Shown here piece by piece: positions 2,101 to 62,200 of a stretch of DNA of 64,000 bases; the stretch's first letter is position 1; every line of letters starts with the position of its first letter. The DNA lies in assembly GCA_025558075.1 (NCBI GenBank), contig JAHLKF010000018.1:248001-312000 (forward strand). Reading direction: 5' to 3'. The notes beneath the pieces were generated by a model. That model was given only the letters and a program-made list of their open reading frames with translations. It did no database searches and had not been told where the DNA came from. Origin of the DNA: Gaertneriomyces semiglobifer (taxonomy: Eukaryota > Chytridiomycota > Chytridiomycetes > Spizellomycetales > Spizellomycetaceae). Position numbers and translations under genes: made by a program.

Positions 2101-5100
2101 CTAATTCTTCTTCTTCTTCTCCTCCTTCTTATTCGTTTTGGGCACCCTCACCCACCAATAAATAAACACCGCCATCCCCGCATTAAACACAATATACACC
2201 CACAACAGCCCAAAATTCCTCCACCTCCGTCCATAATCACTGCTCACCGCCTTCAAAAACACATTCGTATCTCCAATCGGACACAACTGACACTCGCTCG
2301 TCGCAGACGGGTTTCCGACATACCCGCCCATCGCACTCGTGTAGGGCTCCAAATACTCTAAACACGTCTGTCCACTCACGGGGTTCATCACCAAAAACTC
2401 AATGTCGGAACAGACAACATTCGTGTTGGCAACACCCGTGGCTAACATCCCATCAATCAAATACGTAAACGGACTCACACGGTACATCCAGATCCAGAAA
2501 CGGGGTAAAACATCAGGTCCAGCCAATACACCACAGAAAATCAGACACAGCGAGAAGGCCAGTTGCGCGAGGTTTCCTGCGGTTTCGGCACTGTCCATCC
2601 CCGCAATACACATGTCCGTGAACGTCGATGTGAACAAGAGGAACGCCCAAATAAACAGGAACATGAGGAACCCGCGCTCCGCTACCGCGTCGGTCTCGAT
2701 CGCGTTACGGTACATCCCAATAGGGTAGTACCAACACACGTACATCAGAATCGCCATCAACGTCTGCCACGGGATCTCCACAATAATGTTGCTCAGCATA
2801 AACGCTTTCCATGAATAAGTCTTGCTAGGGCGTTCACGGACTTCGTACAAGGACCGTTGGATCACAAAGTGGGGCATGATCTGCTGCACCAATTGTCCAA
2901 ACACTGTCAACATCAAGAAGAGCGAGAACATTTGGTTCTGCAACCCCTGTTGTGAATTCGCCGCTTTGAAGAACGAGAAGCCGATGAACAGTGCCGTGGC
3001 GACACACAAGGCGGTTTTCGAGAAAATGTAGACCGGACTACGCCAGTATTGCTGGAACACCCGCTTGGTGACTTCGACCATTTGTTCGCCCAACGGCGCC
3101 GCAAACTCGTCATAGGCGTGTTGCGCAATGTCGCCCTCGGACCGCTTGATCGCCACGACTGGGAGCTCCTCCTTCATCCTCGCCAACTCGTTCCTCACAC
3201 CCTGGAACTCGGGCGAATCCTTCCACGTCTGGTGCCAATCGATCTCCGTGTGTGACCCAGGCGCAGCTCCAATGACTTCCAACATCCATTCGGCAGGATT
3301 AGCGCCAGGAGGACACGGGAACGCCCCGTTCCGCTCAAAGTAACTCGTCAACACCTCCGAGTTCTTTCCAATATCCCCGAAATAAACTGTCCGTCCACCT
3401 TTAGCCAGGAACAACAACCGCTCAAACCGCTGGAACAACATGGCAGACGGCTGATGGATCGTGCACAAAATTGCTTGTCCGTTCTTGGTCAGCTTTTCCA
3501 TCAGATCGCAAATCGCCCAGGACGTCTGCGAGTCCAGACCCGATGTCGGTTCGTCGAGGAACAGCAACAACTGGGGTTTGGCTGCAAGTTCGACACCAAT
3601 GGTCAGACGCTTGCGTTGCTCAACGTTCAGACCTTCACCGGGAACACCCACAACGGCATCCGCATAGTCTTCCATGTCGAGGAGCTTGATGACTTCATCG
3701 ACATATGCAATCTTTTCATCGCGCGAAATATGGCGCGGTTGACGCATCAGCGCCGAAAACGTGAGCGCTTCACGTACCGTAGAGGTCTCGAGGTGAAGAT
3801 CTTGTTGTTGGACGTACCCCGTTTTGCGTTGGAAGGACGTGTCGCGCTGTTGACCGTCGACCAGCATTTCTCCCGTGACAACACCCATGGTCACACGTGT
3901 CGCAAGGACATCAAGAAGCGTCGTTTTACCGGCACCACTGACACCCATCAAAGCCGTCAACGTTCCAGGCTTCACCCATCCATCTACATGATCCAAAATC
4001 CGTCGATGTTCTCCTTTAATAGTAATGTCATAGCACACGTCTTGCCAGTGGAACACGGCCGTCTGCTTCTGAATCACAGCAGCAACATCCACCTCCTTTT
4101 TCCCGCCCAAAGCGTGACGGGCCACACCCCCGTTTCCAACACCCCCCATTTCCACATCATCTCCCTTTTTGTTTCCGTTCCCGTTCCCAAGGGTCGTGAG
4201 GGATGCAGGCAAGTGTCCACGACGGAAAAGCAGCACTTCTCCTTTGGACTTTTTGGCAGAAATGAACTCGGTGGTCAAGAGATGCAGGAATCCGAATCCA
4301 AACATGAATCCAACCATGATTCCGATATTGCGCCATTTGTGAGCGTGCGTATACTCGTACGCAAGCTGAATGTAGCGATCGCCATCCACATAGTTGGTGC
4401 CGGGAATAGATCCCACCGTCATACAGACCGTGTTGTCGGCGGCAACTCCTTCATAGCCGGGACCAAAGGGGATGTAGGTAGAACAAGGGAAAACACGGTT
4501 GTGGAACTCGTTGACCATCAAGGACTCGAACCCGTACGCAATGGGATCCAAGTAGTTGATCCACCTGGACCACCCAAGCATGTCCCTGGTAGGAATAGCG
4601 AACCCGGTATACAGCACCAACCCCAAAATCAAGACCGCAGCAGGGGCAAGCGCCTGGTGTAAACTCCTAGAACTACTGGCAATGGTCCGGAACATCATAC
4701 TCATCGCAAGCGTCAGTACAAAACTCGTCAGCACAAAGAAAAAGAATGGGCCCGGTTCGCGACGCAGGTTGGTCATAAAGTACAATGTAATGTTGAAGAT
4801 GATGGCGTTGAGGATCTTGTACGGCATGTCGGTCAACATGGACGCGACGGCTTCCGCAGAAGGATGGTACAAGGCATAACGTGTGTGTTTCTCGACAATG
4901 GGACGTTGAGCGTACAAGGTCAAAATCTCAAGGGCACTTCCAAAGGCGTTCATCAAAATGGCAAAGAACAAGAGCGCGCCACGTGAATAGAAACTCGACG
5001 TGTTTTCGGGGAGGTTGTAGAACACACTTCCGATGATCAGGGACATGATAAAGTTACCGAAAAGTTGGGTCAAAGTCAGGGACGGGTCACCTCTGAGACG

Positions 5101-6886
5101 CTGGAACCCTCTCCAGAGACAGAGTTTAACTTGCTGGGTATACGACAGGGTATACGGGGAAGAGACACTTTGGTGTTTGGCTTGCTGCATACGACGCGAG
5201 TGCTGGAACTTGGCAAGAGCATCGCCACCGATGGCAAACTCTTTGTCGTAGGCCTCAATCTCTTGAATGAGACGTTTGTATTGCTCCGAGCTCTTCCACA
5301 CCTTGACAAATTCGTCAGGCGTGCGGGGAACCTTGTCTTCATAGCCAGCGCGGGCAATCCGCTCTTTCGCCGAGGTCAAGGACGTCAAGAAATCGGCCGT
5401 CGTCTGACGGTCAGGGCAGTGGAATCCGACATCGATCCAAAACTGCTTGGCTTCCTCACATCCACCAAAGTAAATCTGACGACCCTCGTACAGGACAGTG
5501 ACCTTGTCGAACAAGTCGTAGGCAGACTGCGGGGCTTGGTAGATGGCGACGCAAGCGGTGGCGCCCAACATGTCCGTCGACAGCTGGAGGGTTTTACAAA
5601 ACTCGATGGCGTTGGCGGAATCCAGACCACGCGTCGAGTTATCCCAACACTGCAACGGGGCGTTGCTCAGGGCGGCTTCGGCAATGGAAACACGCTTCCG
5701 CTCACCACCCGACACACCACGGATAAAGTCGTTTCCGACACGCGTGTTGATGGTGTGGGAGATACCAAACATGGCCATCACGACATCCCGCATGTGGTCG
5801 GCGTACTCGTGGCGAGTGAGCCCACCGGGGATCCGCCGCGGGGACCGAGCGTAGGCGGCAAAGGAAAGCGTGTCACCCACGGACAACATGGGAAAATGCA
5901 CATCGACCTCGGCAGTGTAAATGGCTTCACCGCGGAAATCCGAGTGCATCTGCTTGGCCGAGATCCCTTGGTAGTTGATGTACGATTTCTCGTCGACGTA
6001 GAAACCGTGGGTTTCACCAGCAATGGTCTTGAGAAAGGTGGAGCACCCACTTCCGGGTGGACCAAGGACGACGAGCATTTCTCCGGCCCGAACGAGACCG
6101 TCAAAGTCGCGCAGGATCTGGATTTTCTTGGGTTTTCCGAGTCCCACGAGGGATTTAGCAGTGGCCCACACGTCGGTGAGCACGCCGCCCACGGTTTTTT
6201 GGTAGTCGGTCTCGTTGTTGTAACCATAGGCGTTCAGGTTGCGAAAGGCGACTCCGGCGGTGCGGTCGGGGTAAGCTTCCGCATGACGGGAGCGGAGCTT
6301 GACGAGCGACTTTGTCCAAGCGCGGGCGGAAAAGTTGGCCGAGGCGGGGTCGAGTTTGCTGTCTTGTTCGGGATCAAACGGGTTGGCAGAGGATGCGACC
6401 GACGTTCCTGATCGCCCGGACCGTCCTGATGCCAGTGACAAGTGCGAACGCTGCGTCATGCGTCTATCGGGAAGAATCGGGAGAGGAATGGGCGAGGCAT
6501 GTTAACATTTTTACATTTTCCCATGCATTCTTCACGCATCTCGCAATAACATTTCGCATTTCCTACCTGGCAAGTTTGCGAACTTCCTCTTCTCTAGCAG
6601 TCTCATCGGCGACATAATGAACGTGGCCAGTCCCACTCAACCTCGGCTGCGACTCGTATCTCGGAGGAGCAGGCGGCGGCGGGGCTAATGCGTCCTTGTT
6701 CTTCAACGCATCCTTTTCGTTATCGCCGACATGAATCTCATGCGTTATATCTTGTTGGTGTTGATGTGAGAGGTGTGCAGTGCGATCATCGCTGGCCTGA
6801 CCGACGGACGGACCCAAAGCAGCGCCTTGAGAGTGCAAGTGATCGTCAATGTTGGTAGGAGCGGTGGGTATGGGAGCCGTAGCCAT
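2101..6886 (-). CDS. PDR-type full-size ABC transporter (ABCG), 1560 aa, two exons
   Basis: Exon 1 is 6886-6567, the intron 6566-6464 (GTAGGA...TAG, with a GTTAAC branch-like site), and exon 2 6463-2101. The join gives [15 protein letters not shown], the usual fungal PDR N-terminal stretch. The order is NBD1-TMD1-NBD2-TMD2. Walker A1 is GPPGSGCS (residues 241-248) with the Lys replaced by Cys, as in fungal PDR proteins. The first signature is VSGGERKR. Walker A2 is GVSGAGKTT, the second signature is the degenerate LNVEQRKR, and Walker B2 runs into [13 protein letters not shown] Lys/Glu-rich tail closes the protein. Length and asymmetry of the two sites match plasma-membrane drug or lipid exporters of the Pdr5/Cdr1 class. 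The substrate cannot be told. A start at the exon 2 ATG (6459) is possible but would lose the conserved N-terminal segment. Confidence 0.95.
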
Positions 6887-9700: not shown

Positions 9701-11738
9701 ATGAGAGGGACCCAGTTTACGGCAGTGTCCCTGCTGGTGTTGTGTTGTGCGAGTTTGGTGGATGTGGCGACGGCGCAGGGAACGACTACAGTACCTGCGA
9801 ATGCTCTCACGCCCGATGGACCGGTTGTGGATAGTGCCAAGTACGAGGCACCAAAGGAAGCTAAATATGATTACGTGGATGTAAGTAGTGTGAACTCTCA
9901 CCGCCATCCCTCTGTCGTCCACCATCGCCGGTCATCCGCCGTCCTATGTCGTCTATCCGCTCTCACCACACATTCAACTTACACATGTCCCTTTTTGTTA
10001 GGTTTTGCACAAGTCATATCTGTTTTACTGGGCACAACGGTCTGGCGCCCTTCCCTACAAGCGTCTCGCATGGCGTGGCGATTCCTGTCTCGACTGCAAG
10101 GGTGCGTATGGCGAAGACCTCTCTGGCGCGTGGTACGAAGCCGCCAATACCATGAAATGGGGCGGCCCTTTGGGGTTCACCGTCACCCAACTCGCATGGA
10201 ATGTGTATGAATACGCAGACACCCTCAAACAGATCGGGGAGTACGGGGAAGCCGTGAGCTGGGTGCGTCATGGGGCCGAGTACCTCTTGAACGTGTACAC
10301 TGAAGAAGGCGGAGAGGGACGGTTGGTGGGGAACTTTGGAGTGAGTGCGGCCATGGTCAATGGTAAAGAGGAAGATGTTGATTTCGGATACTTTGGACCG
10401 CCCGAAGAGTGGCCTGCGTGGCGGCCGTTTGGGGTGGACCGACAAGCGTGGTACTGTCGAGCAGGTGGGGCGCAGAACCAGTCGTGTAGTGATATCGCTG
10501 GAGATTATGCGAGTGCGCTTGCTGCGGCTGCGGTGGTGATGAAACCTGTTGATGAAGGGTTTGCCAAACGGTGTCTGGATATGGCGGAACGGATCTTTGC
10601 GTTTGGGAATCAGCATAAAGGGTCGTACATGGACCCGGGGTTTAATGAGTTTGGGTGGAAGACGTATCGCGAGTGGTACCCGTCCTCGGGGTTCACGGAT
10701 GAGCTCGCCTGGGCCTCCACATGGCTCTACATCGCAACCCAAAGCCCCGACTATCTTGCCATTGCGACACAGTACACATCCGCATCAGCGGGCACCAGCG
10801 AGTACAGTTGGGCAGACAAGGGCATGGCCGCGACGATCCTGATGCACCGGGTTGCTCTACAAACGAAAAACGCCCAGTTGGCCCAGACCTACCAAACCAC
10901 GATCGAAGGATACTTTGCTCAATGGTTACCCGGGGGCGCCATCAAACGTACCCCACGTGGTCTCGCCTACCAGTATTTCTGGGGGTCACTCCGTTACGCG
11001 GCCAACACGGCCCACCTCGCCCTCGTCTACGCCAAAACCGACGGCGTCGCCCCCACTCTCCGCACACAATTGGAAACCTTTGCAACACAGCAGATTAATT
11101 ATATGTTGGGTGATTGTGGCCGGTCCTGGGTGGTTGGGTTTGGCAACAAGTCACCGTTGTTGCCGTACCATAAGTCTTCGTATAATGCGTACATCCACTA
11201 CCCCATGCGTGGACAGGATAATGGCGCACAGGGCAACGATTTCTTGAACAGTAACACCCCCAATCGGTTTATTCTTTACGGGGCGTTAGTCGGTGGTCCG
11301 GCCGACGACGATCGGTATGTGGATTCACGACAGAGTTATGAGTATACCGAAGTCACGCAGGATTATAATGCGGGATTTACGGGAGCCGTGACGGGGTTGA
11401 TTGAGATGTATGCCAAGCGGGGGACCAAATTTGCGAGGGCGAGTGATTGTATGTTGGATTTGGGGTGGGAGTATGTCAAGCAGCATGCGACGAATGTGAC
11501 GGAGAAGGATCGGGAGTGGATTAAGCAGGGGGATTGTTATCATGGGTGTGGAGAGTGTGATGAGGCTGTTTTGGAGGAGGTGAGAGAGAGGAATGGGAGT
11601 ACGAATGGGAATGGGAAGGGAAGTAGTAAGCCGGGGAAGGATGGGAAGGAGAGTGAGGAGAGTGCGGGAAGGGTTGTGAGTGTGTGGAGCTTTGGAGTGG
11701 GGCTTGCGGTGGTTGCGGCGGTTGGACTCTTGATGTGA
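9701..11738 (+). CDS. Secreted or membrane-anchored GH9-family protein with altered catalytic Asp motif, 638 aa
   Basis: Exon 1 is 9701-9880, the intron 9881-10001 (121 bp), and exon 2 10002-11738. Residues 1-25 are a signal peptide ending ATAQ. The GH9 (alpha/alpha)6-barrel domain follows, opening YDYVDVLHKSYLFYWAQRSG, with WRGDSC, the AWNVYEY helix, GALVGGP and DYNAGF. The catalytic acid appears conserved as Glu510 (YTEVTQDYNAG). At the site of the GH9 DAGD motif, which carries the catalytic base (Asp58, helped by Asp55, in Thermobifida Cel9A), the sequence reads EAAN (Glu106, Asn109). After a Gly/Ser/Lys-rich linker the C-terminus is a hydrophobic segment (VWSFGVGLAVVAAVG), so it is a TM or GPI anchor signal. 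The fold assignment is firm. Hydrolytic activity is doubtful, and a carbohydrate-binding or otherwise altered role at the cell surface is possible. Confidence 0.92.
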
Positions 11739-45784: not shown

Positions 45785-48700
45785 ATGGACGTCGCGCTCG
45801 TCGGCATTGGATTAAGGCTGCCTGGCGGCTGCTCCGACAAGGATGCCTTCTTCCGTTTCTTGGAAGCAAAGGTACATATACTGACCAAAAACCACCCGTA
45901 TTACCTTGAGTTATTGACTGACTACCTCATTTTTAGGGTGACGCCATGCGACCACCGCCGGAGGACCGTTGGAACCATGCAAAGTTCTATAGCCGTAAGT
46001 GGTCGCATCGTGCTGTGCTGGCGTTTCTATGCTCTAACGCGCTCACCACAATGTTGTAGCGGACCGCGAATGCCCGGGAAAGTCCGTTGCGCCGCTTGGT
46101 GGGTGGCTCACCGACATCCACATGTTTGATCCACTCGAGTTCGGCGTGTCCCAGCACGAAGCCAATGCTTCCGATCCCAGCTTGCGCTTATGCCTAGAAG
46201 TGGCCCACGCTGTTCGTACTAAACCCAGAATTTTGCAAATTGTGATAATGTCTGTCTAACGTTTGTTTCGTCTTTGCTCAGGCCCTCCGCGACTCGGGCA
46301 TAGCCTACACCGGAACGAATATGGGCGTCTACGTCGGCCAGCTCCTTTTTTCGCTCTCCGAAGTGGCGCACGACATTCACTCCATTAAGAGCCATTGGGG
46401 TTACGGCAAGACAATTGCGCTCAGAGCCAACCGCATCTCCTACACGTTCGACTTGACGGGCCCCTCCATGGTTATCGATACAGCGTGCTCCGCCTCTGGA
46501 ACCGCAATGCACGTCGCTCTTAATGCGATTGCCGCCGGCGAGATCGATCATGCGCTTGTAATTGGAGCAAGCACCAATGTTAACCCCGAGGGCAACCTCG
46601 GCTTTTCCAAAATGCACATCCTCTCGCCAGAAGGCTCGAGCAAATCATTTGACGCAGCGGCCGATGGATATGCCAGGTATTTACTTTGTGCATTTGACCA
46701 GTGGTGCTGCCGCTGTTGGTCCACGCTGGTGGAGGTTCTAATTAGGACCTTGTCTCTTCACTTTTAACAAGATCGGAAGGTTTCACCGCCGTTGTTATCA
46801 AAAAGTTGGAAAAAGCCGAGCGTGATGGGGATCGCATTTATTGTGTTATTGCAGGGTCTAGCATCAGTGCGAACGGCAGAGGCCGTAGCATGACCATGCC
46901 CGAACCTGAAGCGCAGAAGCGTCTTGTTTTGGACGCGTACCGCAGAGCCAGAAGGGATCCAGGTGACGCTTTCTATGTGGAACTTCATTCAACAGGAACC
47001 CCGGTCGGCGACCCCGCGGAGGCGAACGCCATCGGCGAGGTGTTTACTCAATATAAGCCCCGACATGAACGCGGGAGTGGTTATCTACGGTACGTTATGT
47101 CCATACAGGTGTTGAGGGAAGGAATGCTACTTACTTTCTTTATCGCTGTTTTAAGGGTTGGAAGTGTTAAAAGCAACATCGGGCACACGGAGGGTTCCAG
47201 CTTTCTTGCCAGCCTCATCAAAGTCGCTCTAATATTGTATCGGAAGCAACTCGTCCCCAACATCCGATTCGTCAATCCGAACCCTGCCATTCGCTTCGAT
47301 GATTTCAAATTGCGGGTTCAAACTGAAAATGAGCAGCTCGAACCGCACATGGCAGCTGCAGATGGCCGATACGTAGCATCCATATCCTCATATGGGATTG
47401 GCGGTGCCAACTGTCACGCCGTGGTAACCAGTTACGCGCCCAATGCAAACGACGCTCAACAGGACACTGCTGTTGAGGAGGAAGATATCTCGTTGCCGTT
47501 GTTGTTCGTTATCGGTACCCGATCCCAGAAATCCTTGCGTGAATTGACGCAACGCGTGATCCAAGCGTATGGTAACTGTGAAAGTCCCAAGACATTGCGC
47601 CTCCTTGCATACCAACTTTGCCGCCAGGCTCGAAATTACCCTCACAAGTCCCTGGCAGTTGCCCATGATTTAGCCACAGCCAAGTTCGTCGATCAACCTC
47701 TCGTACCTCCTGTTCGATCGGACATCAAGTATCGGCATGCGAATGGAATCCACACGTCAGTATGCCTGGTATTTGGGGGGCAGGGTCCCCAACACAATAA
47801 CATGGGGCGCCAGCTTTTCTCGATGTACCCCGCCTTCCGAAACTCGATCAGGCAATCTGACCGATACTTCATCCTTCACAATAACAGCGCGTTAGATATC
47901 AATGGATCTTTCACAGCCATGACTGGTCTTTTCGAAACCGTATCTGATGCAAATTGTGGAGAGCCAAAGATTGTGTTGCCTTCGAATGGGGTTTGGCCTG
48001 TCCAGTTCGTGGTTCTCTCGTTGGTCTTTTATCAAATTGCAATGGTTGATCTTGTGAAAAGCTTGGGTTTACGTATCGACGTCGTCATCGGGCATAGGTA
48101 GGCGTTATAGCACGATTGAAACGTTTCCGAGTGATTAATCACCGCGACGCCTGCTAATGCACATCTTTTCCAAAACAAAAGCCTGGGCGAAATTGCCATG
48201 GGGTACGCCAGTGGCCATCTTACGCACGAGATGGCAATCAAAATAGCGATTGCGCGTGCAGCGGCCATGAAGCATGTAGAGAACAATGGTGCCATGGCAG
48301 CTTTGGCTTGCAGCAGCCTGAAGGCCCAGCGCTGTCTTCAAGCGATACCGATGGCTGCTACGGACCGCTTATTTGTTGCCGCAAGCAACTCGCCCAGGGC
48401 CGTCACAGTGGCCGGGGCTCCCGCAACGGTCGACAACTTTGTGGCGGATGTAAAATCTCAGGGCGTGCAGGCTAAAAGGCTCCGCGTGACCTGTGCCTTC
48501 CACACCGAGTTGATGAGCCCCGCTCGCCCGAGTTTCTTAGCCCATCTAGAACGGTTTTCGTCTGATTCTGCTGCTGAAGGATCGAACCTTGGTTGGAGTA
48601 GGCTGCCTGATCAGGAGAGGGTGCCTGTCATATCAACCGTAACTGGAAGTTGGTTGGATCGATCTTTCGATGCGGTAATGTAACGATGCTTTGTTCAGTT

Positions 48701-51700
48701 TCTCCGCTGTGCAAAATTGAGCTGACCTTGTTAACGAACAAACTCATCAGGAATACTGCTGGGATAATATTCGAAAACCGGTGTTATTCCGAGAGTCTAT
48801 TGAATTCTGTTTGCGAGAACACGGAAACAACGTGGTGTTTGTTGAAGTTTCTCCACATCCTGTGTTGAAGGGGTACGTTGAGGAATGCGGGGCTGAGGTG
48901 TGCGTCCCTTTGGGACGGCGCCCGTCCTCTAAGCAGACAGAGGTTGCGGATGGCGTATGTTTGGAGGCGAAAACTCTTTGCGAGGGCTTTGGGAAGATTT
49001 TGGCCTTCTCGAACTATGACCATAATGTGGTCAACCTTCGGCAGCTGTATTGCCTTCCGGACCTCCTGGCGGCGGAAGACATACCGCATCCCGAGTATCC
49101 CTATCAAAAGATACCTTGCGTGCCACCAGAAGACCCCACGGCCCGTTTTCATCGATTGGGGGTTTCAAACTCTTGGCGGGACTTCCGTCTGAATGCGTTG
49201 ACACACCCGTGGCTTGACATGTACCGCATAGCTGGCGTACGACTGATACCAACTGCCGGGTAAGTTTGCGTGCACATTTTGGGGCCCTGTTGATCAGCAC
49301 AACTCATTCGAATGGGTGGCGCAGGTATATAGCGGGCTTGCTGATGTCGGGAGTGCATACAATCTCAGATTTCAGTGTGCTGGAACCACTCATCATTCCG
49401 GACGAGCAAGCCGTGCCTAAATACGTCCACCTCGCTTTGAAGGGAGATGGCTGGGAGCTAATGAGCAATGGAGTCGCTCCGGATGCGCCCGCCGACTGCG
49501 ATCAGAATGGAATCATCTTCCGCACCGTTCATGCGAGAGGCACCTATTCTAGTGCTACAGACTTGAGTGTGGAGACGGAACTGAACGGTTCTTCGCTGTT
49601 GCTCCCGAAACCTGAGGACACCAAGGGCGACAAACTGCGATTGCTAGGCAGCGAGTATTATGGACTTTTCCCCAGTATATATCATTTCCAGGGCAAACAC
49701 TCGAAACCCATCGAATGGATTGAGTATAACAGCTTTACACAAGCATTTACTGCTAGTATTGCGCCCTTCCTCGATTTCTCCAACAATACTCCTGTTGAAG
49801 ATGTCGAGGAGCAGGTCATCGTTCGCGGTACGTTGTTTTGTCCCTTCAATCTTGCGTGACCCGCTCAATGACGACCCCTATTTTGTTATTAGCTTTGGAG
49901 GCGGTTCTACAAAGTGGATTCATAGCTCAATTGGATGGTGAAACTAAAAAACTGTTTTTCCCTCGGGTCCTGATCCCTAAGGGCTGCTTGCAGATCTGCG
50001 TCAATATTGCGTCTGCCGAACGCCACTTGTTGCGCGAACGGTTGGTTCTACACGGGCGCTTGGCGGAGTGGTGTGGAGATGGGTTTTCCGTAAATTGCGT
50101 GTTGATGGAGGAAGCCACTAACCGCACCTTGGTCGAGCTGAAGGGCGTCCGCTATTCACCCGTCAGTGCGGCTCATACGCAGTTTAGCTCAATTGTCTCA
50201 GCCCATAGCTTGTCGTGGCAAGGCACTGAGGATGATGCAGAGCTTTCCACGGTACCGGGCATTATCCCCATCCATCAAGATGCAACAGGCCGATTTCAAA
50301 GTTCCGATGAACAAATGGATCCGAGTAACATGATTCCTTTCGAAGAGCATGACAAGGCCGCCAGCGCCAAACCTGCGATCATGCTTTTTGAAAAGGAGAC
50401 CATGCCTCCGGCAGAGCAGCAAGAATTCGCGAGGTCATACCTGAAGCAGCGAGGCGGATTGATCGAGCCATACATTAAAGTGGGCAGTGGTTCAGAACTT
50501 CTGGTCCCTCGATTGACTCCCGGGATCAAGGAGGAGATTCTTGGATCACGCGGATTCCCAGGTGCAACATTTATCATTGCGGGTGGGCGCCCTTGCATGG
50601 CCAATCATCTTGCATGGGAACTTGCTCAGTTGGGATCCAAAAAGATTGTCCTTTGCAATCGGGAAGAAGCTGTGACATTAGCGGGTCATTTCTCCGCCGC
50701 CGCGCTGCGACCAAGGCTCAAGGCGCTTGGTTGTACGCTCGATGTTATGTCGGACCTTTCAACGCTAAACGAGTTTCAGAGTTCAACGTTGGCTGGTGAG
50801 GGCGCCTGCGGAGTGATATTGTTGTCGGAACTCGCCTCTTGCTGCGAGCATCTTGACACCGAGTCTTCATCCGTTTGCGAAGAACCTATGTATTTGCCGC
50901 ATCAATTGGAGACATTGGGATGGCCCATTGTGGAGATGCGTTTCGTGCAAAGTAGCGACAGGTCAGTAATCGGTTATAGCTGATGCGTTTAACTGAACCG
51001 CATTGAAACGTTTTCTTTGTCAGCTTGTTCTTTTCGATGGCGAATGACGCTGCTGATCGAAGCGTAGTGTACATGACGGAAGGCCTCGCTTGCTCTCTGT
51101 GCGAGACGGTAAATCGAACACGGTCGCAACCAATGAGCATTCGGGCTCTGTGCAAGTTTTTGGTTAACTTCATGCCAAATTGCCATCAAACTTGCGTCAT
51201 TACCTCAGGAGGAACAGAAGATATCAAAACCGTACACGGTCTTTTCGCTCAAGGACAAGGTGCCGCCACTGACGCGGAAAATGAATTGAAGCAAGCAATT
51301 TTGTCGACCTGTGCTGAGTGTTTAGGTATTCCGGAAACATCGTTGTCGGAGTCTTCGCCATTGGTATCCTGCGGACTGGACTCGCTGGCAGGTATGGAGA
51401 CAACCGGTTTATAATATCCCTTGCTGGGAAATTTACTCATTTTGTTCATTATGTTCATTATGTTCCGCAAAGCCTCTCGACTTAGCTGGCTTTTAGAGAT
51501 GAAGCACAATCTCCTCGTGCCGCAAATCCAACTTCTGGACCACATAACCGTTGAGGATTTGTGCAAGATACGCACGGAGAATGAAGAAGGTTCCTCTGGT
51601 CTGAAATTGCAGCATTCAGGCTCAAATTGCATACAACCGGCAGTCAACGACGCCGTCGCGCGGTGTGGGCAACACACTGCCCCTGCATGTCCGTTTGAGG

Positions 51701-53048
51701 AGTCTATTTGGATGGCGCAGGAAATGGAAAACAACACGGCGTATCAGGAGGCGTACTTATTTACAATCGCGACCAAGGCTTCCGAACTAGATTCACGAAA
51801 GCTAGCTGCTGCAGTTCGGTCAATGTGTGATCGACATGGGTCCCTCCGCACCACCCTGGTATGGGATGACGATGAGGAATATCTGACGCAAATCACGCAC
51901 GCGAGCAGCGAGTTCCAGTTGGACATTGTCGACTTATCGGATACCCCGAACGGCGAAGGGAAAGCGAGACAGGCGTGCCTGAACACCAACTCGGAGGTGC
52001 TGTTCGAATTGGAGTCTCTACCCATTGCGAAGGGCACCCTTTATCGAGTATCCGTGGAGAAATGGCTCCTGCACCTCGTCATCCACCATGTGGCCATCGA
52101 CCACGTGTCGTTAGATATCATGTTCAAAGACATTGCTCGGTTGTATGCCGACCAGCCTCTGCCAGCTTTAGACTACCAGTACGGGGATTTCTCCGTCGAC
52201 GAGAGTTCGCACAGCGAGTCGCTCGAGTTTTGGAAGAAGCATTTGCGGGGAAGCCGCCCGTTGATTATGAGTCTTCCTGGTCCTGCAGGTAACCGTACAC
52301 AGTGTTCATTGGCCCAGAGGTTCGGTGGCGCGCTTAACATGCTGTTAATCAAACAGGTACTCCCAATGTTTCCTCGAACCACTTGCGCGTGAACATCCCA
52401 ACCGCGTCTTTTGCACGCTTTGAACAAGAATGCCAAAAGCATCGCATGACAAAGTTTGCCGGGTATTTCACTGCATTTAATGTGTTGCTGCACCAACTGA
52501 GTGAATCCGCGCAAGGAGATTTTGTGGTTGGATCGCCATTTTCCCGGAGGACCTTGGCCGAGTTCGAGAACACGGTCGGGTACTTTGTCAACATGCTGCC
52601 GGTGCGCGTGTACGTTCAACCGGAGATGACGTTTCTCGACCATGTCGCTGATTTACGCGACATCCTCGCCGGTATCATGTTGCATTCAGCCGTGCCTTTC
52701 CAGATGATTGTGGACCGTGCTCGCGATCCCGACGCTGACCGAAGCCTGTTTCGCCATGTGTTTGTGTTTTCGGGCGATCGATCTGCGGACTTTGTTCAGG
52801 ACATGGAAATGGCGTTCGAGGCCTCTGTGCGCTTCGAGTGCCTTCCTCCACCGGATGGCAAGTTTCCGTTTCTCCTTCACTTGGACATTGCGTTAGGAAC
52901 GATCACCGCCGAGTTCGACCCGGCGCTGTTTTCGCCCGCGCGCGTGGCGGACCTCACCGACCGCTTCGTCCAGCTGGTTGCTCTAGTGGGCGACGACTGG
53001 AACACGCCAATTGGTGGCCTTTCCAGCCGCGGCGCTGTTGGTCGCTAA
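45785..53048 (+). CDS. Polyketide synthase with terminal condensation domain (KS-AT-DH*-KR*-ACP-C), 2133 aa, 13 exons
   Basis: Exons are 45785-45871, 45937-45994, 46060-46211, 46282-46676, 46772-47089, 47156-48097, 48182-48674, 48751-49259, 49325-49827, 49893-50961, 51024-51391, 51473-52288 and 52357-53048. All twelve introns (62-95 bp) keep phase. KS has the triad DTACSAS (Cys168), ELHSTGTPVGD and SNIGHTEG. AT has GHS|LGE (Ser651, split by an intron) and CAFHTELMS, close to the malonyl-type HAFH. The DH motif HxxxGxxxxP reads YRIAGVRLIP (Tyr973 in place of His), and the helix Asp is Glu (LEAVLQ). A short KR-like fold has a poor nucleotide motif (AGGRPCMA). ACP has GLDSLAAS (Ser1629). The C domain has HHVAIDH (His1836, His1837, Asp1841). 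No ER, methyltransferase, A domain or reductase follows; the stop after C is clean. It is probably a non-reducing or partner-dependent synthase whose C domain passes the chain on. Confidence 0.93.
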
Positions 53049-53805: not shown

Positions 53806-55706
53806 ATGGTTGTCGTCCGCCTCGTCGCCTCGCGAGGCACGGCACTCCGTTTGCAACGGGGCTTCTGCCGCCGGTTGCTGCTGAGGGCCGCCTCCGGCAC
53901 TGCAACAACAAGCAACTCATTGGCCTCTCGGATAGACAGGTGCGCCAAGGAAGTTGCAATCATTTCATACACTGACTGACGATGGTTCAGGATGCGCTCA
54001 GATTTTGGAGCCCCCGGATGTGCGGTGGCCGTGGTTAAGGGCAACGGTGACGTGGTCTTCTCCGGCGGATGGGGTTCTCTCGGAGTCGCTCGGCCGTATG
54101 CATCTTCGCCCGTCACAGACCGCACTCCTTTTGCCATTGGATCCATTGCAAAGACTTTCACAGCGCTGGGTGCGTTTGCAGTCGACGGAGTCTTACTGCT
54201 GTTCGTTCGTTCACATTATTCCTTCAGCGATAGCGACCCTGGTGCAGCAAGGGAAATTGTCGTGGCAAGACCGCGTACGCGATCACCTTCCCTCCTTTGT
54301 CCTTCCAGACCCGCTGGCCAACGAGCACACCACGGTGGAGGACATCCTGTGCCATAGAACGGGAATGCCTGGACACGATATGCTTTTGTAAGCACGACTC
54401 CCCACAGCTCATTTTTGCATTGGCCCGACCTCACCCTATTCATATTTCCAGATTTCACAACAAAAACCTGACCAGAGCCGAGTGTGTTGAGCGACTTCGA
54501 CTTTTAGACTCTACAGCCCCATTTCGCACCACCTTTCAATACAACAACCTTATGTGGGTATTCAAATCAACTTGTCGGTTTGGGTGAAGCACTCGCTGTG
54601 TGACCAATTCGGATGAAGTCTGCGTATTACGTGACCCGGAACAAATCCACGCGCGCTAGCTCGGTCGTACTCGATACTGATTATGACTATGAATGCATTT
54701 TTATTCTAGGTACGTAGCAGCAACGGAACTGGTCAGCAAGGTATCCGGTAAAGACTTCTATGACTACCTCAACGAAACTGTCTACGTCCCATTAGGGATG
54801 GGTGATTCATCACCTGTACTCCACAATACAGAAATCGCTGCTCGTCCGCATGCAGCTGGGACCGACAATGGCTTGATTGAACGCGCATTTCCCGACGCGC
54901 AAAACATTGGTGGAGCGGGCATGCTCTACTCGAACGCCCTGGACATGGCGAGATATATGGCGACGCTGCTTAATGGTGGGACTTGCCCAAGCTCGCGGCA
55001 CACCATTGTGGAGCCTTCCGTCCTTGACACACTGTTCAGGCCCAGGATCCCGGTCACGCCAGATCCGGCGGAGTATCACGAGTATGGCCGCTTGCTTTAC
55101 GGTTTGGGCTGGATGGTTAATCATTTCCACGGGCGGCATATGGTGTCCCACGGTGGAAACATTGCCGGCTATTCTGCATGGCTAGGCCTTTTGCCGCAAG
55201 ATGACCTAGGGGTTGTCGTCCTTACAAACAGGGAAGTATGCTTCCTCAACGAAGCGGCTGGGTTGACGCTCATGGAGGAGTTCCTTACTGCCGACACTCC
55301 ACGGGTTGATTGGTCTGCTAGGTACCTGAAGACTCATAACGAGCTGCAAGAGCAAATACTGCCGTGGAAACCCAGCAGCGACGCTTGTGCAGGCTTGCCT
55401 ACTGCTTCTGCTCTATCGTGCGAAGGCACTTATGTCCACAAAGCGTACGGCACGGTCGTTATTACATCCTCCGAAAGTGCTGTTTCGGACAAGTCTAAGA
55501 GGAACCTTCTCGTTAAGATCAATGGCTGTGAGTATAAGGCCCATGTGACGGAGGAGGATGATGCCTTCAAGGTGAATATGCTGGATTACGGCTTTGCCGT
55601 ACCTGGCCAATTCCATCGGACGGAAAACTCAAAGGATGCCCCTACATCTGCCATCTCCCTATTATTAAATCCGGCAGTTGGACCTTATGTTTTCACTCGG
55701 ACGTAG
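53806..55706 (+). CDS. Beta-lactamase-fold serine hydrolase or acyltransferase (LACTB/LovD class), 523 aa, five exons
   Basis: Exons are 53806-53939, 53991-54169, 54228-54387, 54452-54553 and 54710-55706, with introns of 51, 58, 64 and 156 bp, all in phase. The SxxK motif is SIAK (Ser96, Lys99) in FAIGSIAKTFTAL, the YxN motif YNN (Tyr188), and the third motif HGGNIAGYS. The C-terminal 170 residues form an extra domain, as in many class C-like hydrolases. The first 30 residues are Arg-rich with no acid (VVVRLVASRGTALRLQRGF) and look like a mitochondrial presequence, as in animal LACTB. Genomic position next to a PKS suggests instead a LovD-like acyl transfer or product-release role. The two readings conflict and the sequence cannot settle it. 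Confidence 0.88.
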
Positions 55707-56227: not shown

Positions 56228-59200
56228 TCACGGTTTCTGTTGATGCGACTTTGACGCGTGCAAGAGGTGGAAGTTGCGCAACTTGACGGCAAACTCTTCG
56301 GCAAACTCGCGGTTCTGTGGAATATTCAACCCTTCGTCATGATCCAACACGGATATTTTCTCAGGCGAGTATGATAGAGCAACATCGAAACTCTTCCGGT
56401 GCCGGGGATCCTGCTGGCTGCCAATGTACAACACTGGGGTCTTGTGCGGCGCTGACTGCCGCGCAGGAGTTGACTTGCTCGCTACTTTTGTGGGACCAAT
56501 CAAAATGGCGTATTTCCACAAGGACGCCATGTTCCTTTCTGCTACCATTTTTTCCAGGTACTCGACAACAGCTGCACCCTGCCCGACACCCAGCAGACCG
56601 TCCACTGGCCCTGTTTTTGCCAGTTCATAGAGAACGGCCTGGGCGGCGCTGTAAAGACTCTTGGCATTATCGCCCTTCTTGCTGATCCACGTCCGCAAGC
56701 TTCCAGATTGGTCTGAAACGAAGCGGACATAAGTATTAGGTCAATGCATCAGAAATTCTGCTCGCGCAGCGAAGAATAACTCACCGCTCAATTGAGTAAC
56801 TACCGGTGCATCCATGAAAATCAAGTTAACTCCACGGTAAGCCTCAGCCAATCCAGATAGTTGCGCTTCGAGACATGCAGCGTTCTCGTAGGCATCGTGC
56901 AAACATAAAATCTTTGGTGCCGAAATACCTGCGTCTTCATCTTTCGCATCTACTTCGAATGATATTTTCTTGGTCGTAGGAGCCAATTCCCATCCGTCAG
57001 CACATGCACGTTTCGCTTGGTCTATCAAGACCTGGATCTTATCCGCCACCATTTTTGCGAATGAAGACGTTCGGGGGATGATGTGACCCTCGTCGTGAAC
57101 GAGCGAATCTTGCAGCTCTTTGCTGTAGCGGCTCGCAATGTTCTTGCTCATACGATGGAATTGGTCTTTCGGGCTCGTAATCAACAGTGAAGGAACCGGG
57201 TATGGTCCCGCCCGCCTCTTGAAGTAGGTCGAAAGCGGCATCTGGATGGCCGGAGCAAGCAGGACGCTGAACTGCCACATTCGAGGAATCTTTCCTCCGT
57301 GCGCCAAGCGATCCATGTACTCGACAACGCCTCCACCTTGGCAATAGCCTAGCAAGCCGTGGACACCACCAACTGCTTTGATCTTGCGCAGAACGGCATC
57401 GGCGGATTTTCGTAGAGTTGCTTCGGTCCAATTGAGCGACGGGGTCCACATGTAATAAGGCGCCTGGTAGACATCCATACCATCTGCAGATAGGGATGAG
57501 CAAGAGTTAGGGATTGCAATAAGTGGCATGCAATTGAAAGTGGTGAAACTTACCGGATGTCTTGCATTTCAAAGGTGCATCCATGTAGACAAACTCGACT
57601 TTGCTTCCGAGTGCATCTTCCATCTTCGACAGTTGCGAATGGAGAATAAAGGCACTTTCGGTCTGCCCATGGAGACAGAGAATTCGTGTAATGCCGCTAT
57701 TATCCTTGGGTGTCCGCATGTTACCGACAGTGGTCGCCCCTCCCATTTGCGTCAGCAAAACAGCGTGGTCGGAAATGGAGGGCCTTTTCAATAAGTCGGC
57801 GTATTTCATTACGAGACCTATTTTCTTATACCGCTCAAGAAGTTGAACCGCCAACAATGAATCGCCGCCTGCGTCGAAGAAAGAGTCTTCAACACTGATC
57901 GTAGAAGGCTCTCTGCGCAAAACAGTGCTCCAAATGTTCAGCAGTTCCTGTTCTTTTTCATTTCGCGCATGGCAAATCTCAACTTCGACTGGGATTTGCA
58001 AAAGCTTCTGCTTGTCCAGTTTCCGATGGGCATTCATGGGCATCTTCTCCAAACACACGATAGCCGATGGTACACTGTAATGGGGTAGGGTTTGTCGTAA
58101 AGCCTCTTTCAGGGCTCTCGCGTCCAAGCTGGACGGGGTGACAAACGACACTAGCATTTCATCACGCACAATGGTCGCAGCCTCTTTTACTCCCAAGCAC
58201 TTTTCCAGAGCCACATTTATCTCCTGTAATTCCAAGCGATACCCCTTGTATTTCACGAGCTCATCCACTCTGCCGATGAACTTGAGGTTCCCACTCGGAA
58301 CCCATTGTACCCAATCGCCTGTGCGATACATTTTCGCACCCTCCTCCCCTGAAAACGGGTCGGGCAAAAATTTCTCTGCCGTGAGTTCCGGGCGCTTGAT
58401 GTAGCCTTTTCCAACCCCTAATCCTCCTACGTATAGTTCACCGACTTCTCCCGCGCGGACTGGAACCAGGAGCCTATCAAGGACATAGCAGTTCACGTTT
58501 CTCAATGGCATACCAATGTTTATTTCATCGGGAGACAGCAGTCCAACGGTGGTGAGGACCGCGCATTCTGACGGTCCATAGCCGTTGTAGAGCTTGACGC
58601 CGTGCTTCATCCATCGTTGCACCAGGAGGGGTGACACGTCTTCACCCACAGCGAAAACGATTTTCAAGTTAGGATGCTCAAGCGGATCAAGGTGCTGAAG
58701 ACCGGTCGGAGTTATCATTATCGTGTCCACTTCCTTCAGCATTTGACCATCATCGTCCCGGAGTACTAGCGTTGCTCCGGTGGTCAAAGCCAGGAAGATT
58801 TCCAGTTGTGCGCCATCGAATGGAATGGCCATGAACTGGCTCATCTTCCTTCCAGGGCCCATGTCGAATCGCGCAACCATGTCGGACAAAGTATTGGCGA
58901 AGCCTAGGTGCGAGTTCAAGACACCTTTGGGAATTCCGGTCGAACCAGAGGTGAAAACCATATTGATGGTGTCCGATAGCACGGCCTGGTCCGTAACCTG
59001 CGAGTCCGCTGCGACTGCTGGCAATGGCGAATCTAAGCAGAAAGCGTGCGAAAGTTGGCGCAGTTTGAGCACCCTTTCGTGAACACGTTTTGAACCACAG
59101 ACCACTATGTCGCAATCGGCCTGTTCCAGTATATTGCGAATCCTATCATCGGGAACGCTTGCATCAACCGGCACATATGCCGCCCCGGTTTTAAGAATAC

Positions 59201-62200
59201 CGAGTATCCCGACGACCATGTCGATCGATCGCGTAGTCAGCAAAGCAACGTGAAGATTTGGTCGAACTGCACCCGTAGATGTAAGTGCCGACGCCAATTC
59301 ACTCGATCGGCGATCGAGATCTCGGTAACTGATTGACTGTGTGCCCTGCGTCACCGCAAGCGTCTCTGGGTACCGTTGTGCAACGACCGCGAAAAGCCGG
59401 TGAGCGAGTTCAAATTCCTCGACCTGCGGCGATGGCGAGCATTGTGGCACCAGTGCTGCCGGTCCGTCCTCGTACGCGGAAGACATGTCAGCGATACTTA
59501 TCTCATCCGGAGCATGCACCAAGGCATGGAAAATGGCACTAAGCTTGGTGAACATGCCTTCAATGAATGTGCCATCATAAGCATTATTATTGAAGAGCGC
59601 CCACAGCTGCAAACCTGTGGGGCTTTCTGCTGCGGTGATCGACAAGGGATACTCGGTCATTCCCTTCGACGTCAGATGTTGAATGGAAAATGGTAAGCTT
59701 TCACCGTCGCCAGCAGTGGGAAAGTTTTCTAGCACGACCAAGGTGTGGAATAGAGGCTGCGTCGGCGGTACTTTTGCCCATTTGTGAATTGCCGTTAGCG
59801 GAACGTTTGAATGCTCGAGGCAGTCAGCATGGAAGCGGTGAAGCGCCCGGAGTAGCTGAAATATCCCAGTCAACAACTCGCAAGCAAGAGGCTTTTATTT
59901 TGCTGGCACGAATGCTTACCTCGACAACAGTCATGGAATTGTTCATCTTGACCGGAACAGGAAGCGTGGTCATGAGCAGTCCTACAATTCTAAAATGAAA
60001 ATCTTTTAGTCATTTCGTTGCGGGCTTTTGGTAATGGAAATATGCGACGCGTACTTCTCAACACCTGAAACCCCAGAATCCCGTCCCGAAAGGGTTGTTC
60101 CGAACATAACTTCGTTGCTTCGCAGGTAATGCCTCAAGAGCAGGGCCCATGCCGCGCGAAGCAGGGTAGACAAGGTAATTCCTCGTTTGCTGCACGCGGA
60201 GACAAGGGCCTTCTTTCCCATGTCGATGACAAAAGGCACAATCTCATGCTGGGGTTCTTCTTCGACCCCTTGCCGGTACTGAGAGAAGGCCTCAGACGGA
60301 CCAACCTGTGAGATGGCACGAGACCAGAACAGCTGTGACTTTTCCTCATTCCTGGTGGCTAGGACGTATTCGACGTGTGATCGTAACGACGGAGGAGAAT
60401 CTTGAGAAAGGTTCCCCGTGTACGCCTTGAACAGGTCGTTGACCACGATTTGCTCCGACCAGCCATCCAGTAGTGAATGATGGTAAACCAGATGAAGCCA
60501 GAAATGTGACTCTGCAAACAAGGAAGATGCGCGTCAGGAACGGAAAGAAAACAGAGGTGATCACTGAACATACCGTCATGCGCATAAATGCGTAAGCGTA
60601 TCAGTGTTTTGGCATCCAGCTCGAAGCCCTCACGGCGTTCATCTTCCATAATCTGCTCATAGTCCACAGCCCCTGGTAGACGGCTGGAAGCTAGGTCGTC
60701 AGCGTCCCACGTCACCACTTGATGAATGCCGCTTTCTGTCGGCACGAAAACAGTGCGAAGGGCGTCGTGCTTCTGAACGACTGCCTTCCATGCTGCCTGC
60801 AGCCGTGGAATGTCGACTTGTCCTTTGATATCCCACATATGTTGCACCACGTATGCCGTTTTGTCCTTGATCATGGCAGTTGCGAGGCCTTCCTGCAACG
60901 CTGTTAGAGGGAACATGTCCGATGGCGTGAGGCCGCGACTGAGCACGGTATCTTCGATCACTTTTCGTAGGTCAAGCGCCATCTCAAACCGCGGAATGCG
61001 CCTGATATGATCGGGGGACGAGGTAACTAATTTAAGAGCCAGATCTTCCAGCAAAGGAGCGTTGAAGACGTCCTTGGTTGTAACCGCATATCCCGCCTTT
61101 TGACACTCGGACACCACGCGAATGGCGGAAATACTATCCCCGCCGAGCTCGAAAAACGATGAGTGCTTGCCGATGAGGGCGACGTCTTTGTTTAGTACTT
61201 TCGCCCAAACCGCTTGTAAACGGATCTCATCCTGCGTTGAAGGTGCTTCTGACGAGCTGCAGATGGTGAATACTGGATGGGACTTGTCGACCTTTCAAAA
61301 AAAACGTAACGTTTAGAACATGAAGGATCCAAAATACTCAATAACGTGGGTCATACCTTTCCATTCGGCGTCATGGGAAAGCTGGGCAATGCTTGCAAAA
61401 CTGAAGGGACCATGTAATATGGTAAGCGTTCTTTTAGGACCAATCGAACGGCGCCACAATCGACGTCCTCAGGACATACAAAGGCTGAGAGAACATTGTC
61501 CCGAACCATTGCCACGGCTGCCTTAACAGAGTGGCAGGATTCTAAGACCGATACGATTTCTCCAAGCTCGATGCGATATCCTTTCAGTTTTACTTGATCG
61601 TCTACTCTGCCGATGAACTCAATTTCTTCCTCTTCATTCCATCGAACCATATCGCCCGTTCGATACATGCGGCCACCTTCAACAAACGGATCCGGCAAAA
61701 ATTTGGTCTCGTTGAGGTCCTCTCGTCCAACATAGCCTTTTGAGACTCCCACACCTCCGATGTACAATTCCCCGCAATCTGCCGGTGTCAGAAGCTCATC
61801 CAAAACATAGCAGTGTACGTTGTTTAGGGCTCTGCCGATGGTTACGGGTTTGTCAGGCTGGAGGATACTCATTGTCGTGAGCACTGTGCACTCGGTGGGA
61901 CCGTACCCATTGAGAAGCCTGCAACGTTCGCCCCAGCGCTGAACGAGTGACGGAGGCACCGCCTCTCCCACTACGCAAACCGTTCGCAAATTCGGGTAAT
62001 CGATAGGATCCAGTTGCTGCAGGCCGGTTGGAGTAATGACAAGAGCATGTACGGTTTTAAGCATCTCCAGACCCTCTTCCCGCAACACTAAAGTCGCTCC
62101 GTTCGTGAGAGCAGCAAATATTTCCCATATTGCGCCATCGAAAGATACGGCCATGAATTGGCCTATCCGCACACGCGGCGCGCACCCCATCTTCACCATT

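What the first reader, a model, noticed from the sequence alone, without database searches (positions are those of the whole stretch)
56228..57700. Tandem FSH1 domains at the NRPS C-terminus: one with a Cys nucleophile, one dead
FSH1-family hydrolases carry GxSxG (usually GFSQGA) with Asp and His. In the first domain the Ser is Cys (GYCQGG), while HDEGH and a candidate Asp (SPKDQ) remain, so a Cys-His-Asp triad is possible. In the second the nucleophile is Gly (GVGQGA) and the His is Leu (HDEGLNIP), so it cannot be a normal hydrolase. Tandem thioesterases occur in some lipopeptide NRPSs, but an FSH1 pair with this split of active and pseudo-active domains is not one I know.
Basis: partly seen in the sequence, partly recalled or inferred. 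Interest (0 to 1): 0.85.

Follow-up and report, generated by a model that had tools for sequence, protein, structure and literature searches.

The report
Twin release domains on chytrid peptide synthetase
A giant enzyme that probably makes a ten-unit peptide in a swimming-spore fungus ends in two copies of a hydrolase fold, one with an unusual cysteine active site and one that has lost its active site, a variant of a little-studied way fungi may release such peptides.

Summary
The minus-strand gene ending at 56228 is modelled as a 30-exon, 10,999-residue NRPS (10 A domains). After its last carrier domain come two full-length FSH1 (PF03959) domains, 90.4 and 65.9 bits against a cut-off of 21. 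The fusion is firm by sequence: A, T and the start of FSH1-1 share one open frame, and both splice joins are well formed. FSH1-1 reads GYCQGG with Asp and His kept (possible Cys-His-Asp triad). FSH1-2 reads GVGQGA, has Leu for His and lost the HG glycine. All 12 other FSH1 sequences aligned here have Ser.

It is not wholly unprecedented. Two Chytridiales NRPSs (Chytriomyces, Zopfochytrium) end in one Ser-type FSH1, and an FSH1-ended NRPS is in print for Batrachochytrium. The four NRPS-fused domains compared form one supported clade; the pair here probably arose by duplication within it. Best reading: FSH1-1 replaces the missing thioesterase through a Cys acyl-enzyme, and FSH1-2 is a structural pseudoenzyme. 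New are the duplication, the Cys and the dead partner. Activity, transcripts, product and species are untested or unknown.

The parts
57554..59855 (-). NRPS exon: end of last C domain, A domain, T domain and first ~47 residues of FSH1 domain 1
   Evidence: gene model; Pfam AMP-binding 209.8 bits, PP-binding 39.6 bits; one open frame
57484..57553 (-). intron inside FSH1 domain 1, 70 nt
   Evidence: GTAAGT, CTAAC, CAG
56785..57483 (-). exon: rest of FSH1 domain 1 (Cys nucleophile, Asp, His), ~29-residue linker, start of FSH1 domain 2
57332..57349 (-). nucleophile elbow GYCQGG of domain 1
   Evidence: aligned with GxSxG
57083..57097 (-). His motif HDEGH of domain 1
   Evidence: read; aligned
56713..56784 (-). 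intron inside FSH1 domain 2, 72 nt
   Evidence: GTGAGT...CAG
56228..56712 (-). last exon: rest of FSH1 domain 2 (GVGQGA, HDEGL) and stop codon
59856..64000 (-). upstream exons of the same NRPS inside the window (64000-63813, 63750-63285, 63226-61357, 61291-60574, 60511-60055, 59989-59920); the modelled gene continues to contig position C18:339185
45785..53048 (+). neighbouring PKS (model, 11 exons): KS, AT, ACP and a C-terminal condensation domain, no A domain found
53992..55706 (+). PF00144 beta-lactamase-family gene, 482 residues (model, 5 exons), possible trans-acting partner
   Evidence: 170.4 bits

Best explanation
The pair is the chain-release unit of a ten-module NRPS. FSH1 domain 1 stands where a thioesterase or terminal condensation domain normally stands and would take the finished peptide from the last carrier domain onto its Cys by transthioesterification, helped by the His and Asp of a Cys-His-Asp triad. 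A Cys acyl-enzyme is more prone to attack by an internal hydroxyl or amine than a Ser oxoester, so cyclising release is favoured over plain hydrolysis (inferred by analogy with ObiF1). FSH1 domain 2 arose by duplication, lost nucleophile, His and the HG glycine (oxyanion role recalled), and is kept as a folded non-catalytic partner. Shown by sequence: fusion, domain order, residues, shared ancestry with FSH1 domains of two other chytrid NRPSs, no PF00975 match in this synthetase. Inferred: activity of domain 1, cyclisation, role of domain 2.
For: Position: the last T domain is followed by FSH1-1 and FSH1-2, with no PF00975 or further C domain matched after it. Two other chytrid NRPSs (P0010 Chytriomyces and P0071 Zopfochytrium, four A stretches each, both Chytridiales) end in one FSH1, with GFSQGA and an intact His. 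The four NRPS-fused FSH1 domains form one clade apart from the 10 stand-alone ones, support 97/96; dom1+dom2 are sisters at 94/91. The genome search with PF00975 gave one partial match, on C4, 29.7 bits (exon-wise search, a lower bound). Domain 1 keeps the elbow glycines, Asp, His and HG glycine. Coding score per codon of both domains (0.145, 0.151) lies inside the range of 253 upstream windows (0.073-0.244), so neither looks like decaying sequence (those windows are also what the score was trained on). Chemistry precedent: ObiF1's GXCXG thioesterase, whose Cys-to-Ser form gave only the hydrolysis product (PMC6668435, passages); SulM also uses Cys (PMC11298585, passages).
Against: No activity, transcript or product data. 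In the two chytrid relatives the Asp column holds Ala and His (GSKAE, GSPHE), against Asp in the 10 stand-alone proteins, so the acid is not conserved in the NRPS-fused clade. The exon-only structure model of domain 1 is poor (mean pLDDT 52) and cannot show a triad. ObiF1 and SulM are thioesterase domains with small products, not FSH1. The dom1+dom2 branch is just under the tool's strong-support mark and dom2 is a long branch. An FSH hydrolase of the fusarin cluster is reported as not essential for biosynthesis (PMC10512364, passage), so FSH1 proteins near assembly lines need not do the release.
Confidence: 0.6

Rival explanations
1. Both FSH1 domains are catalytically idle. Release is done in trans, for example by the adjacent PF00144 enzyme, the stand-alone canonical FSH1 on C20, or the PF00975-like protein on C4.
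For: Domain 2 lacks its catalytic residues and domain 1 has a substituted nucleophile; a PF00144 gene with GSIAK (SxxK, motif recalled) sits beside the NRPS; a stand-alone FSH1 with GFSQGA and HDGGH exists on C20. LovG, likened to an FSH1 protein in PMC10512364 (passage), releases dihydromonacolin L as a separate thioesterase (title cited there).
Against: Domain 1 keeps His, Asp, elbow and HG glycines while its sister lost nucleophile, His and HG glycine; Cys is a workable nucleophile in ObiF1 and SulM.
Confidence: 0.2
2. Domain 1 is an editing (type II-like) hydrolase that clears stalled chains, and the final peptide leaves by uncatalysed cyclisation or another enzyme.
For: ObiF1's triad is likened to that of RifR, a type II thioesterase (PMC6668435 passage); LovG is named among fungal TEIIs in PMC12571304 (passage).
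Against: Editing enzymes are usually separate proteins (recalled); this one is fused at the exit of the line, as in three other chytrid NRPSs (one from print; two).
Confidence: 0.13
3. Gene-model artefact: the FSH1 exons belong to a separate gene or to a read-through.
For: No transcripts were available; exon edges are predicted.
Against: A 795-residue frame runs through A and T into FSH1-1 with no stop; intron 1 lies inside domain 1; a like fusion is annotated in two other chytrids.
Confidence: 0.02

Closest known systems
NRPS BDEG_03514.1 of Batrachochytrium dendrobatidis, T-C-T-A-T-FSH1 (Bushley and Turgeon 2010, PMC2823734, passages)
   Same: FSH1-like domain directly after the last carrier domain of a chytrid NRPS
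   Different: one FSH1 and a short synthetase; its sequence was not seen here, so its nucleophile is unknown to me
Chytriomyces cf. hyalinus BJ741DRAFT_566300 (P0010) and Zopfochytrium polystomum DFJ73DRAFT_251708 (P0071)
   Same: NRPS ending in an FSH1 of the same clade
   Different: four A stretches, one FSH1 each, Ser (GFSQGA) and His kept, no Asp at the GxxD column
Tandem thioesterases of Pseudomonas lipopeptide NRPSs and lysobactin synthetase (PMC3656897, two passages)
   Same: two release domains in tandem at the NRPS C-terminus
   Different: thioesterase-type domains (PF00975, recalled), not FSH1; here the second domain has no active site
Cys-type thioesterases ObiF1 and SulM (PMC6668435, PMC11298585; passages)
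   Same: Cys-His-Asp, GxCxG elbow (ObiF1), chain release from an NRPS
   Different: bacterial thioesterase domains forming four-membered rings of small products; here an FSH1 domain and probably a ten-residue chain
Yeast FSH1 (PDB 1ycd) and LovG of Aspergillus terreus
   Same: fold family; 1ycd is matched by domain 2 (E 0.0012) and by a profile of stand-alone FSH1 proteins; LovG releases a polyketide (title cited)
   Different: stand-alone; 1ycd has Ser (alignment); domain 1 alone did not find 1ycd; LovG's sequence was not seen

Membership tests
FSH1 (PF03959) | profile match above the curated cut-off over the full domain | tested here: met
   90.4 and 65.9 bits, cut-off 21, profile 5-210 and 4-210 of 211
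FSH1 (PF03959) | Ser nucleophile in GxSxG | tested here: not met
   Cys in domain 1, Gly in domain 2; Ser in 12 of 12 other sequences aligned. They are homologues of FSH1, not FSH1 serine hydrolases
FSH1 (PF03959) | catalytic His, domain 1 | tested here: met
   HDEGHIIP; His in 12 of 12 others
FSH1 (PF03959) | catalytic His, domain 2 | tested here: not met
   HDEGLNIP
FSH1 (PF03959) | Asp of the GxxD turn | tested here: met
   Asp in both domains; Asp in 10 of 12 others, absent in P0010 and P0071
type I NRPS thioesterase (PF00975) | profile match | tested here: not met
   no PF00975 hit; none in this gene in the genome scan
type I NRPS thioesterase (PF00975) | C-terminal position after the last carrier domain | tested here: met
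type I NRPS thioesterase (PF00975) | releases or cyclises the peptide | not testable with these tools
   needs biochemistry
tandem thioesterase of lipopeptide NRPSs | two thioesterase domains, each with an active site (that both bear one is recalled) | tested here: not met
   domain 2 lacks nucleophile and His; neither matches PF00975
Cys thioesterases (ObiF1, SulM) | Cys nucleophile in GxCxG with His and Asp available | tested here: met
   domain 1, by sequence only
Cys thioesterases (ObiF1, SulM) | triad geometry | tested here: inconclusive
   partial model, mean pLDDT 52
chytrid NRPS-FSH1 fusions | FSH1 of one clade fused after the last T domain | tested here: met
   clade of the 4 NRPS-fused domains compared, 97/96; the Batrachochytrium protein was not available

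The most novel reading that the evidence does not exclude
Chytrids use a further, independently recruited kind of NRPS terminator built on FSH1 instead of the TE or terminal C domain; in this lineage it was duplicated and split into a Cys-dependent cyclase and a pseudoenzyme partner that shapes the active site or holds the peptide, giving a cyclic decapeptide, perhaps acylated by the neighbouring PKS-C protein.
Probability: 0.3. Interest if true: 0.75.

Novelty: new variant of a known kind. Interest (0 to 1): 0.56.

Why it matters
How early-diverging fungi end their peptide assembly lines seems little studied: in an open-licence library, the searches for FSH1 or DUF341 with NRPS led me to one short passage on an FSH1-ended NRPS; of the 19 papers listed I opened two. 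If domain 1 works, FSH1 joins the known release folds, and a natural Ser-type set (Chytriomyces, Zopfochytrium) beside a Cys-type, pseudoenzyme-partnered one makes the question of what Ser versus Cys does to hydrolysis versus cyclisation directly testable inside one family.

Tried and rejected
Species: nine requests for the 18S family in the own genome gave no answer. The source is only placed as a flagellated fungus, probably a chytrid: IFT46 is present, a PDR_CDR transporter (fungal, recalled) is in the window, and the top NRPS hit is from Chytriomyces, phylum Chytridiomycota. Passages of the Synchytrium genome paper (PMC6572847) did not settle identity.

Protein searches: the 453-residue query found nine FSH1 proteins, none an NRPS; the FSH1 region of the 1174-residue query found nothing at E 0.001 among 7588 candidates, so the published Batrachochytrium protein was not recovered; the 2856-residue query gave the two chytrid relatives (4807 of 7990 scored candidates passed, 120 listed, 2 of these 120 carry PF03959; the other 4687 were not seen).

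Structure: a model of the exon that holds most of domain 1 was poor, so no fold search was made. So the frequency of Cys in FSH1 at large was not measured.

Considered and rejected: separate gene; dom2 from the stand-alone C20 FSH1 (p-AU 0.005). Grouping dom1 with the two other chytrid domains without dom2 is not rejected (p-AU 0.068). Substrate codes of the ten A domains were looked at but not used for a product guess. PMC5635595, listed, has FSH1 only as a gene of a polyketide cluster (passages).

Full report
What is there. The window is contig C18:248001-312000 of a 20.86 Mb genome in 66 contigs. On the minus strand a large NRPS ends at 56228. A simple dynamic-programming gene model of my own, on the window plus 28 kb beyond it, gives 30 exons from C18:339185 to 304228 and 10,999 residues; exon sizes recur from module to module, which supports the model. 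Motif counts (motifs recalled) give 10 A domains, 11 T domains, and 10 C-type motifs, of which one, in module 6, looks like an E domain; the protein starts A-T-T without a C domain (one YRTGD hit falls inside the E region and is not counted). The condensation search of the genome shows the matching exon series. No transcript was seen, so exon edges are predictions.

The pair. Pfam finds PF03959 twice after the last carrier domain. Apart, domain 1 scores 90.4 bits and domain 2 65.9 bits against a cut-off of 21, both over nearly the whole profile. The end of the last C domain, A, T and the beginning of domain 1 share one open frame of 795 residues. Against PDB sequences, domain 2 finds yeast FSH1 weakly (1ycd, E 0.0012) and domain 1 finds no FSH1 entry. 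Column by column in the alignment of 14 sequences: nucleophile Cys in domain 1, Gly in domain 2, Ser in 12 of 12 others; HG glycine present in domain 1, Asp in domain 2, Gly in 12 of 12; His in domain 1, Leu in domain 2, His in 12 of 12; Asp in both domains and in 10 of 12, the two exceptions being the NRPS-fused chytrid domains. The 12 are P0001-P0009, the two chytrid NRPS domains and the stand-alone FSH1 on C20. Yeast FSH1 also has Ser (alignment). Twelve sequences are a small sample of a large family, so I do not claim that Cys is unique in FSH1.

Is domain 2 just decaying? Its frame is open, its profile match spans the domain, and its coding score (0.151 per codon) is like that of domain 1 (0.145) and within 253 upstream windows (0.073-0.244, median 0.170), which also served as training data. 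It is the longest end branch in the tree (1.89 against 1.03 for domain 1). That fits a fold under constraint with a relaxed active site, but without orthologues selection was not measured.

Relatives. The third protein search put a Chytriomyces NRPS with PF03959 first and lists a Zopfochytrium NRPS with PF03959: 2 of the 120 rows shown, out of 4807 that passed. Both organisms are Chytridiales. Both proteins have four A stretches and one C-terminal FSH1 with GFSQGA and an intact His. At the Asp column they hold Ala and His, which counts against a fixed triad in the clade. Bushley and Turgeon 2010 describe Batrachochytrium BDEG_03514.1 as T-C-T-A-T followed by a domain similar to FSH1 (passage); I could not obtain that sequence (one search found nothing). 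Searches for FSH1 or DUF341 with NRPS, tandem thioesterases and chytrid or early-diverging fungal NRPSs showed me no tandem or Cys FSH1 on an NRPS; only open-licence papers are held, and most listed papers were seen as listings only.

Ancestry. A maximum-likelihood tree of 14 rows joins the four NRPS-fused domains (97/96) and, inside, dom1 with dom2 (94/91, just under the tool's strong mark). Placing dom2 with the stand-alone C20 FSH1 is rejected (p-AU 0.005); placing dom1 with the other two chytrids without dom2 is not (p-AU 0.068). So FSH1 was probably recruited once to these chytrid NRPSs and duplicated later in this lineage; an older duplication with loss elsewhere is not excluded. Domains 1 and 2 are 34% identical over 197 columns; domain 1 is 29 and 32% identical to the Chytriomyces and Zopfochytrium domains.

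Mechanism. No PF00975 thioesterase was matched in this NRPS, and the genome scan, which searches exon by exon and is a lower bound, found a single partial PF00975 match elsewhere. By position the FSH1 pair is therefore the likely release unit. ObiF1 and SulM show that Cys can serve in NRPS thioesterases; in ObiF1 the Cys-to-Ser form gave only the hydrolysis product, and the authors relate Cys to energy-neutral acyl transfer followed by ring closure (passages). From this I infer a Cys acyl-enzyme and a bias to cyclisation. The exon model (mean pLDDT 52) places the Cys (residue 47) between a strand (42-46) and a helix (48-61), as a nucleophile elbow should be, but is too weak for geometry. The role of domain 2 (scaffold, substrate holding, stabilising domain 1) is conjecture. 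Against the reading, an FSH hydrolase of the fusarin cluster is reported as dispensable (passage).

Neighbours. A PKS on the plus strand (45785-53048, model) ends in a C domain without an A domain, and the NRPS starts without a C domain, so the PKS could hand an acyl chain to module 1; this is inference. A PF00144 gene follows (53992-55706). Its product is the main rival for release in trans.

Organism. IFT46, PDR_CDR and the top chytrid NRPS hit point to a zoosporic fungus; the species is unknown because the 18S search never ran.

Verdict.

Noticed in passing
45785-53048 +: PKS with KS, AT, ACP and a C-terminal condensation domain but no A domain; the two stretches tested between AT and ACP (49218-49856, 49799-50980) have no Pfam match. 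It complements the NRPS that starts A-T-T without C.
   Followed up: partly
53992-55706 +: PF00144 beta-lactamase-family gene with SxxK (GSIAK) between the PKS and the NRPS; the acyltransferase LovD is of this family (recalled).
   Followed up: partly
L007 (C18:330001-340000), start of the NRPS: The modelled NRPS begins A-T-T: two carrier motifs in tandem after the first A domain.
   Followed up: no
L009-L011 (C16, about 380876-398611 minus): Second large NRPS near an MFS_1 transporter gene (C16:375850-377265, 44.7 bits); no PF03959 match on C16. What it makes was not studied.
   Followed up: partly
P0010 and P0071 C-termini: The two other chytrid NRPS FSH1 domains keep Ser and His but have Ala and His at the Asp column (GSKAE, GSPHE).
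   Followed up: partly
G000 C23:146134-146864 and C6:928593-929464: Matches to IFT46 at two separate places in one genome.
   Followed up: no
10002-11735 + and 2104-6501 -: Glycosyl hydrolase family 9 gene and a PDR-type ABC transporter in the window.
   Followed up: no
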